From SAR324 cluster bacterium (lineage in GTDB: Bacteria; SAR324; JACQKK01), in contig JAPUJL010000154.1 of assembly GCA_027296185.1 (NCBI GenBank), forward strand, positions 1 through 5,652: a stretch of DNA of 5,652 nt, read 5' to 3'. Position 1 is the stretch's first letter; each line of letters begins with the position of its first letter. Shown one piece after another: positions 4,414 through 5,652 of this stretch. Position numbers and translations under genes: made by a program. The notes below the pieces were generated by a model. That model did no database searches. It saw only the letters and a list, made by a program, of their open reading frames with translations, and had not been told where the DNA came from.

Positions 4414-5433
4414 CTACTCGGCAGCCAGCTTGTAAATCGGCCCTTCCGGATAGAAGACGCGAAAGCGGTCGTTGCGGATAGGGTTGTAGCGCAGTTGCTT
4501 CAACTCCCTGCCGCGAAGCTCGCCTTCCACCGCCTCCCCCGTGAGCCAGGACCAGCGGCTGCCGGTCTGCTCGTCCCGCAGCCCTTCCCCGCCGTCTCCC
4601 GAGCCTTCGCTTCGGAAGGTCAGCACCCGCCCGTCCAGCGTGCGGCTCCAGGCGGTGGCGGTGCCGGAGTCCCGCGAGTAGTAGACCAGGAGCTCCTCGC
4701 CGTTGAAGCGGTCGTTAACCACGTTCCGCTCCTCGAGCACCCGAAATGGGTAGAGCTTGCCCTCGAAGCGCACCACCACGGCCAAGCCAATGCGGCGGCT
4801 TCCGCCCAGCCCCCGGTAAGTGCCCATGAACCCGCGGGTGCCGAACCCGGGCAGAACGAGGGTGTTGGGGTGGGAGCGTTTCCACTGGGACCAGGAGGTG
4901 AGGGTGGAGGGCATGAAGGTCAGCTGCGCCCCTTTCAGCGGGCCGGTTTCCGCGCGCCCCGTCACATGCACCCAGAGGGACTCCGTTTGGCGGTCGTACA
5001 TGACGAAGGAATTTTCGTAGAGTATCCCCTCGTGGCCGAAGCTCAGCACCCGGCCGTTCAATGTGCGCTCATACACGATGGGCGTCTGGCAGAGCGGTCA
5101 CCACGAGACCGCGATGGGCACACCCCCGATCGTGTCGTTGCCCAACTCGTGAAGCCCCATCACCGAGATGGGGTAAGCCTTGGCCTCGCCCCGGTGGGCC
5201 ACGCCGATCACGGCGTCCCTGGGGTGAATCCAGCCGTTCCGCTCGGCTTCCTCGGCGCTGGCCATCTTGGGATCGTCGAAAACGGGGAATGCATCCCGGG
5301 GCACCGCCCGGTACCCGAAGGGCGCCTCCTCGGAACCTCCCAACTGGCAGAAGGCGAGACAGCCGCCGACGGCCAAAACCAGCAGAATCGCCGCCGTCGG
5401 GAGCAATCGCTTCCAGTTCTCGCTGATTCGCAC
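4414..5433 (-). CDS. DUF3179-family protein with in-frame UGA, predicted selenoprotein
   Basis: One 339-residue product in a single frame, interrupted only by a UGA at codon 112 (5098-5100), read as selenocysteine. The N-terminus has a basic start and hydrophobic stretch (residues 10-29) with VGGC (22-25), a possible lipobox, so it is exported and perhaps lipid-anchored. Then come RDAFPVFDDPKMASAEEAE, VIGVAHRGEAKAYPI (75-89), HELGNDTIGGVPIAVSW (95-111), U112-P-L-C115, and NGRVLSFG...LVMYDRQTESLW-like text, the order found in DUF3179 proteins, whose motif is usually Y-C-P-L-C. The UGA therefore replaces the first conserved cysteine. A second copy of the domain (about 214-314) has serines at these positions. 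The GTG at 5433 is chosen because AAAGGA (5438-5443) lies four bases upstream; an ATG at 5481 would add 16 residues. The family's biochemical function is unknown to me. The alternative is a nonsense mutation or sequencing error. Confidence 0.82.
5059..5088 (-). promoter_or_regulatory. Candidate bacterial SECIS element
   Basis: Reading the mRNA from the U of UGA as base 1, bases 17-19 (CGC) pair with 33-35 (GCG), a C.A mismatch follows (20/32), and bases 21-23 (CAU) pair with 29-31 (AUG), closing the five-base loop CGUGU (24-28; window 5073-5077). Below it, bases 13-15 (CAG) can pair with 40-42 (UUG) across an internal loop. The apical loop starts 20 nt after the UGA and has G at its second position. 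These features fit the known bacterial SECIS model (short upper stem, G in the first two loop bases, about 16-37 nt from UGA), which recruits SelB. The lower stem is weak and the fold was done by eye. Confidence 0.6.
5098..5100 (-). other. Predicted selenocysteine codon (UGA)
   Basis: The minus strand reads GTC TCG TGG TGA CCG CTC TGC, giving V-S-W-U-P-L-C. The reading frame is open for at least 150 codons upstream and 227 codons downstream, and both sides match the same protein family continuously. UGA serves as an ordinary stop in the aminotransferase, DedA, acylphosphatase, dksA and dcd genes here, so this is not a genome-wide recoding of UGA. Confidence 0.8.
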
Positions 5434-5469
5434 GGCGTCCTTTCTGTCGTCGGGTTCCCGGCGGCGCGG

Positions 5470-5504
5470 GGGGCGCGCCATCTCCCGGGCAGCCTGCGCG
5501 CCCC
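5470..5504 (-). repeat. 9-bp perfect inverted repeat in the leader of the selenoprotein gene
   Basis: GGGGCGCGC (5470-5478) and GCGCGCCCC (5496-5504) are exact reverse complements with a 17-base loop. The loop contains CCCGGGAGATG on the minus strand, which places the alternative ATG (5479-5481) inside the hairpin. No U-tract follows. The structure would occlude the upstream ATG and leave the AAAGGA/GTG start at 5433 free, which supports the GTG start. It could also be a terminator-like remnant after the upstream gene, or a leader regulator. Confidence 0.4.
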
Positions 5505-5574
5505 GGCCCGGCCTCGGATGTGAAGTGGACCACAAAGCCGTCGGCGCTGCTCCGGCGGGCATGGTACGCCGATC

Positions 5575-5652
5575 CTACCCGCGCTCCGCGATGGCCACCC
5601 GCGGCCGGCCCGCCAGATCGTTGCGAATCTCCCGGAACTGGAGGCCGGGTTG
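5575..5652 (-). CDS. prmC: C-terminal fragment, probably PrmC-type release factor glutamine methyltransferase
   Basis: The last 25 codons of a gene entering from the right edge, ending in TAG (5575-5577). The tail reads LQFREIRNDLAGRPRVAIAERG. The pattern of a short beta strand, then R-x-D-L-A-G-R-x-R-V and a small basic end, is the common C-terminus of PrmC/HemK, the SAM-dependent enzyme that methylates the GGQ glutamine of release factors RF1 and RF2. Only this tail is visible: no SAM-binding motif or NPPY catalytic motif is in the window, so the assignment is by similarity of a short segment. The stop lies 141 bases before the DUF3179 GTG on the same strand, so co-transcription is possible. 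Confidence 0.45.
   Translation of the reverse strand, partial: QPGLQFREIRNDLAGRPRVAIAERG

What the first reader, a model, noticed from the sequence alone, without database searches (positions are those of the whole stretch)
4414..5433. Probable new selenoprotein: DUF3179 protein with selenocysteine in a U-P-L-C motif
Two adjacent minus-strand open frames are in the same frame and separated by a single UGA. Upstream text (HELGNDTIGGVPIAVSW) and downstream text (PLC...NGRVLSFG, MYDRQTESLW) are contiguous parts of one DUF3179 domain. The UGA falls exactly on the first cysteine of the family's Y-C-P-L-C motif, and the partner cysteine (C115) is kept. A random stop would be unlikely to hit a Cys codon of a redox-like CxxC and leave hundreds of codons intact on both sides. 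Cys-to-Sec exchange in CxxC/UxxC motifs is the classic signature of bacterial selenoproteins. I do not recall DUF3179 among the classic bacterial selenoprotein families. If confirmed, it would suggest that this domain of unknown function is a thiol/selenol redox enzyme in the cell envelope.
Basis: partly seen in the sequence, partly recalled or inferred. Interest (0 to 1): 0.95.

Follow-up and report, generated by a model that had tools for sequence, protein, structure and literature searches.

The report
Selenocysteine protein of DUF3179 family
An in-frame UGA in this bacterial gene is predicted to code for selenocysteine, because 35 of 68 compared gene copies carry UGA at that codon and the other 33 carry cysteine; the protein belongs to DUF3179, a family already listed as containing selenoproteins, so this is a well-supported new member rather than a new family.

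Summary
In detail: one minus-strand frame (GTG 5433 to TAG 4414) is broken only by TGA 5098-5100, and DUF3179 matches on both sides. The selenocysteine reading is strongly supported. In 68 loci read (window included), the column is TGA (35) or TGC/TGT (33); dropped loci are listed. A hairpin 20 nt past the UGA fits the published bacterial SECIS model, covaries, and reaches six of seven pairs in 27 of 35 TGA loci and 0 of 33 Cys loci. The genome has tRNA-Sec; relatives carry selA and selB. selA, selB and selD were not found in the window's own 73.6%-complete assembly. The claim of a new selenoprotein family is wrong: two reviews list DUF3179 (UxxC/T), citing a 2007 study, and one database relative is named "DUF3179 domain-containing (seleno)protein". 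Not found in print in the library searched is the predicted fold: two homologous halves shaped like Rieske ferredoxin domains but without conserved Rieske ligands, with U-P-L-C only in the first. One relative fuses DUF3179 to a TlpA/thioredoxin-like domain. I infer a selenol/thiol redox protein of the cell envelope. Known family, new member; interest modest.

The parts
4414..5433 (-). DUF3179 selenoprotein gene, 339 codons, GTG start, TAG stop
5438..5443 (-). Shine-Dalgarno-like AAAGGA, four bases before the GTG
   Evidence: the near-identical end of contig C319 (L062) has a one-base indel here, so the frame is not kept upstream of the GTG (by eye)
5359..5433 (-). signal segment ending in a lipobox-like VGGC (predicted lipoprotein or membrane anchor)
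   Evidence: simple pattern, no signal predictor run
5098..5100 (-). UGA, predicted selenocysteine codon 112
5089..5091 (-). Cys 115 codon, partner in U-P-L-C
5066..5084 (-). predicted bSECIS hairpin: 7 stem positions (6 paired, one C.A), loop CGUGU at 5073-5077
4849..5316 (-). first DUF3179 half, carries U-P-L-C; predicted Rieske-like fold
4417..4860 (-). second DUF3179 half, homologous to the first, S-R-D-S in place of U-P-L-C

Best explanation
The UGA at 5098-5100 is predicted to be read as selenocysteine, giving a 339-residue DUF3179 protein that is likely exported and would work as a selenol/thiol redox protein through its U-P-L-C motif. Shown: the frame, the TGA/Cys column, purifying selection on both sides, the covarying hairpin, tRNA-Sec in the genome. 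Inferred: SelB reads the hairpin as SECIS; Sec forms a selenenylsulphide with Cys 115; a thioredoxin-like protein of the envelope recycles it. Predicted: two homologous halves with a Rieske-like shape and no iron-sulphur ligands, only the first half carrying the active pair.
For: Column census: 35 TGA, 33 TGC/TGT of 68 loci. In 98 genomes the 11 matches above 360 bits (one is the window itself; 7 genomes) each hold exactly one TGA; in 145 genomes around G100 so do the 10 matches above 450 bits (9 genomes). Hairpin: 5.94 of 7 pairs in 35 TGA loci against 4.17 under synonymous recoding; 2.48 against 2.79 in 33 Cys loci; covariation score and share of paired cells above all 500 shuffles and all slides. 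It fits the published model: loop 3-9 nt, G in the first two places, 16-37 nt from UGA. tRNA-Sec 64 bits, anticodon tca. selB over cut-off in 4 of 4 genomes of the first loci found; selA in 13 of 14 relatives, own genome not counted. dN/dS after the UGA 0.06-0.39 in nine pairs. Fusion of DUF3179 to a TlpA/redoxin-like domain, P0167. Two Cys-lettered proteins close to this subfamily, P0133 and P0136.
Against: Own assembly: selA none; the best selB and selD matches are below cut-off and are EF-Tu and ThiL; it is 73.6% complete. The hairpin is the minimum-energy fold in 3 of 8 short stretches and not in the window (z -0.54). The number of stem positions with changes on both sides (4) is no higher than in shuffles (3.6; 312 of 500 reach it). 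72 of 98 genomes sampled have selB over cut-off, so co-occurrence is weak evidence. Some dS values are near saturation. No selenium measurement. The redox function rests on motif, analogy and one fusion.
Confidence: 0.85

Rival explanations
1. The UGA is a nonsense mutation or assembly error in a decaying gene.
For: Single assembly of a metagenome; one distant relative, L049, does look decayed (several stops).
Against: Same TGA at the same codon in many genomes; dN/dS below 0.4 after it.
Confidence: 0.02
2. The UGA is a true stop and the gene is split into two separately translated proteins, as gene callers annotate it.
For: Databases hold the halves apart: nine aligned C-terminal fragments start with Met in place of Val 163 of the frame; P0169, P0170, P0175 and P0179 end at the W before the UGA column. 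Their DNA was not read.
Against: No TAA or TAG in 68 loci; alternates with Cys only; the split would cut the first half-domain; the SECIS-like hairpin is kept in TGA forms only.
Confidence: 0.03
3. UGA is reassigned or read through as another residue (Trp, Cys) without selenium.
For: The Sec machinery is only partly found in this assembly.
Against: Five of six neighbouring genes in the window end in TGA, so UGA is a normal stop here; tRNA-Sec is present; the column alternates with Cys, not Trp.
Confidence: 0.03
4. It is a selenoprotein but not a redox enzyme: the U-P-L-C motif binds a metal or cofactor, for instance as a variant of a Rieske-type centre.
For: Rieske-like shape of both halves.
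Against: No conserved Cys/His set of a Rieske centre among 33 aligned proteins; U-P-L-T variants exist (L034, L094); fusion to a thioredoxin-like domain.
Confidence: 0.15

Closest known systems
DUF3179 (PF11376) selenoproteins listed in PMC9312934 and PMC13188914, both citing Zhang and Gladyshev 2007 (Olavius algarvensis symbiont)
   Same: Pfam family, Sec at first position of UxxC
   Different: Lineage: the window's genome family includes G002, which is the record titled SAR324 cluster bacterium KW1-S08_229; other near relatives are records titled Deltaproteobacteria and Candidatus Binatia. The 2007 paper was not held, so no residue-level comparison was made.
Cys-form DUF3179 proteins, e.g. 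L001 in the same genome
   Same: Domain and C-P-L-C motif; signal-like segment
   Different: Cys codon, no six-pair hairpin, 35-41% identity
Rieske [2Fe-2S] ferredoxins (e.g. 2qpz, 8hn2)
   Different: No conserved Rieske ligands, no sequence signal against the genome's own Rieske domain
NirD, small subunit of nitrite reductase (3c0d, 4aiv)
   Same: Among the top rows for both halves; recalled as a Rieske fold that lacks the cluster, so the idea of a ligand-free Rieske fold is not itself new
   Different: No UxxC motif (recalled)
TlpA/ResA thiol-disulphide oxidoreductases
   Same: Exported CxxC logic (recalled); fused to DUF3179 in P0167
   Different: Thioredoxin fold (recalled)

Membership tests
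DUF3179 (PF11376) | Pfam profile above gathering score | tested here: met
   233.9 bits, cut-off 27
Bacterial selenoprotein | in-frame UGA aligned with Cys of homologues | tested here: met
   35 TGA, 33 Cys of 68 loci
Bacterial selenoprotein | SECIS hairpin downstream: loop 3-9 nt, stem 4-16 bp, G in first two loop positions, 16-37 nt from UGA | tested here: met
   geometry and covariation; the model's free-energy criterion was not tested, and the hairpin is not the minimum-energy fold in the window
Bacterial selenoprotein | tRNA-Sec in the genome | tested here: met
Bacterial selenoprotein | selA, selB, selD in the genome | tested here: inconclusive
   none over cut-off in the 73.6% complete assembly; selA and selB in relatives; selD not searched in relatives
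Bacterial selenoprotein | selenium in the protein | not testable with these tools
   needs 75Se labelling or mass spectrometry
Rieske protein | Rieske fold | tested here: inconclusive
Rieske protein | two Cys and two His cluster ligands (C-x-H, C-x-x-H; recalled) | tested here: not met
   of 33 aligned proteins the invariant columns hold one Cys (the Sec/Cys column), the near-invariant ones one more Cys and one His
Thiol/selenol oxidoreductase | redox activity | not testable with these tools
   inferred from UxxC and fusion P0167

The most novel reading that the evidence does not exclude
DUF3179 is a Rieske fold without iron: a duplicated Rieske-like domain that carries a selenocysteine-cysteine pair instead of a cluster, making a metal-free selenol electron carrier of the cell envelope that exchanges electrons with TlpA-type thioredoxins.
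Probability: 0.25. Interest if true: 0.6.

Novelty: new member of a known kind. Interest (0 to 1): 0.35.

Why it matters
It supports a little-studied selenoprotein family in a group of bacteria known here from metagenome assemblies, where database proteins hold the two sides of the UGA apart. The predicted Rieske-like fold and the thioredoxin fusion turn a domain of unknown function into a testable redox protein.

Tried and rejected
Rejected: pseudogene, split gene, UGA-as-Trp (see rivals). Rejected: 'Sec-only subfamily'. The tree has an all-Sec branch of 30 rows (support 100/94), but a search with the first half alone found P0133 and P0136, 332-residue proteins with the same flanking text and Cys at the column (W-C-A-L-C-Q), so Cys forms seem to exist near it. 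Their DNA was not read.

No lead: gene neighbourhood is not conserved among the ten neighbours scanned in four loci (RodZ-like downstream in L017 and L018, pentapeptide repeats in L016, CinA in L058). No relative of solved structure by sequence. No sequence signal between the first half and the genome's own Rieske domain. No NCBIfam model hits the window protein or five relatives scanned over their DUF3179 part. Viral fold library: one match with E below 0.001, an uncharacterised Indivirus protein, not followed. PMC5029168 holds both 'selenoprotein' and 'SAR324'; I saw one table passage naming two SAR324 cells and no DUF3179. The blastn of the window against contig C319 ran on a wrong record (211 letters) and says nothing; the overlap rests on the letters printed there and.

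Dropped before the count of 68 loci: copies of loci already counted (L002, L016, L017, L018), L019 (TGA; left out with them though no copy of it had been fetched), L062 (contig ends before the column), L063 (distant match with CAT at the column) and loci fetched for other genes. L049 is among the 35 TGA but looks decayed; it was left out of the tree and of the hairpin alignment. Only fetched loci were counted, not every match row. One search scored only the 7993 candidates sharing most words and takes no protein under 0.55 of the query's length.

Full report
What is there. The window is a whole contig (C62, 5652 bases) of a 2.73 Mb assembly, 73.6% complete. On its minus strand a single frame runs from 5562 to 4414 with one internal stop, TGA at 5098-5100. 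The likely start is GTG 5431-5433, with AAAGGA four bases before it. The frame then gives 339 residues with the UGA at 112 and Cys at 115. Pfam DUF3179 scores 233.9 bits. The other genes identified in the window are ordinary: class IV aminotransferase, VTT-domain protein, acylphosphatase, HU-like, DksA-like and dCTP deaminase; five of these six end in TGA, so UGA is a normal stop in this genome.

Is the UGA selenocysteine? A scan of public genomes found four relatives at 66-68% identity, all four with TGA at the same codon; three of the four were found again as loci of the later searches. Among 98 genomes (the window's and relatives), 33 had a match; the 11 matches above 360 bits, one of them the window itself, in 7 genomes, each hold exactly one TGA, and the next best (170 bits) has none. 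Among 145 genomes around G100, 44 had a match and the 10 matches above 450 bits, in 9 genomes, each hold one TGA. I read the codon in 68 fetched loci, window included: 35 TGA, 33 TGC or TGT, no other. The motif is W-U-P-L-C, once W-U-P-I-C, in the near group; U-P-L-T, U-T-L-C and, in the decayed-looking L049, U-P-L-E occur further off. A tree of 67 loci puts 30 of 34 Sec rows on one branch (100/94) and needs at least four changes of state; strongly supported branches force two. dN/dS is 0.06-0.39 after the UGA and 0.03-0.20 before it in nine pairs, some with dS near saturation.

SECIS. Beginning 13 nt after the UGA there is a seven-position stem with loop C-G-U-G-U; 20 nt lie between UGA and loop. 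The published bacterial model asks for a 3-9 nt loop, 4-16 bp stem, G in the first two loop positions and 16-37 nt spacing (PMC13188914, passages seen). On 34 TGA loci (29 distinct), 83.7% of cells pair, against 70.7% in shuffles and at most 46.3% when slid; the covariation score is 0.357 against 0.139, reached by 0 of 500 shuffles. The count of pairs with changes on both sides (4) does not exceed the shuffles (3.6), and further pair types (10) are reached by 22 of 500. Recoding each locus synonymously gives 4.17 pairs expected against 5.94 seen in 35 TGA loci, and 2.79 against 2.48 in 33 Cys loci; 27 of 35 and 0 of 33 reach six pairs. For the window alone: six of seven, reached by 2.1% of 2000 recodings. 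Limits: I chose the register by looking at these same sequences; they are related; the fourth stem position from the loop fails in 17 of 29; and the hairpin is the minimum-energy fold in 3 of 8 stretches, not in the window.

Machinery. The genome has tRNA-Sec (64 bits, cut-off 47; ARAGORN tRNA-SeC, anticodon tca). It has no selA match; its best selB and selD matches are EF-Tu and ThiL. selA is over cut-off in 13 of 14 relatives searched. Of the seven genomes with near UGA forms, tRNA-Sec is over cut-off in seven and selB in six, all but the window's own. As 72 of 98 genomes have selB over cut-off, this shows that the trait is usual in the sample, not a specific link. I read the gaps in the window's assembly as incompleteness.

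How databases show it. Of 572 proteins found, the 120 listed are 210-234 residues long and cover 54-58% of the query (shorter ones are not searched); the nine that I aligned start downstream of the UGA. Four others end at the W before the column (P0169, P0170, P0175, P0179). P0179 and P0194 carry consecutive numbers, a planctomycete name and the same longest-contig length, as expected of the two sides of such a gene. One relative is named 'DUF3179 domain-containing (seleno)protein' (P0156). The DNA of these proteins was not read.

Is it new? No. Of three papers in the library that hold the word DUF3179, two are reviews whose tables list DUF3179 as a selenoprotein family, UxxC/T, citing Zhang and Gladyshev 2007 (passages seen). 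The third lists a DUF3179 protein in a table (passage seen). None of the three holds the word Rieske in the main text, and a search for 'Rieske-like' with 'selenoprotein' found no paper. Searches with the Pfam number gave the same two reviews.

Noticed in passing
L062 (G000:C319) 1-300 and window 5340-5652: A second contig of the same assembly overlaps the window's right end at high identity with small differences and an indel, so the assembly probably broke on strain variation just upstream of this gene.
   Followed up: partly
G008 loci L023, L059, L060, L061: One genome carries four different UGA-type DUF3179 genes plus a Cys form (L064).
   Followed up: no
P0169, P0179 (and P0170): DUF3179 first halves behind an N-terminal part with a trypsin-like domain match (P0169, P0179), ending at the W before the UGA column: probably further Sec forms with another domain arrangement.
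   Followed up: partly
BFVD A0A1V0SD44 (Indivirus ILV1): A giant-virus protein of unknown function matches the DUF3179 model (E 3e-8, TM 0.53 by target length).
   Followed up: no
L060, stem after its UGA: This locus has a perfect six-pair hairpin CGATCG/CGATCG in a shifted register, so it fails the common stem but keeps a SECIS-like shape.
   Followed up: no
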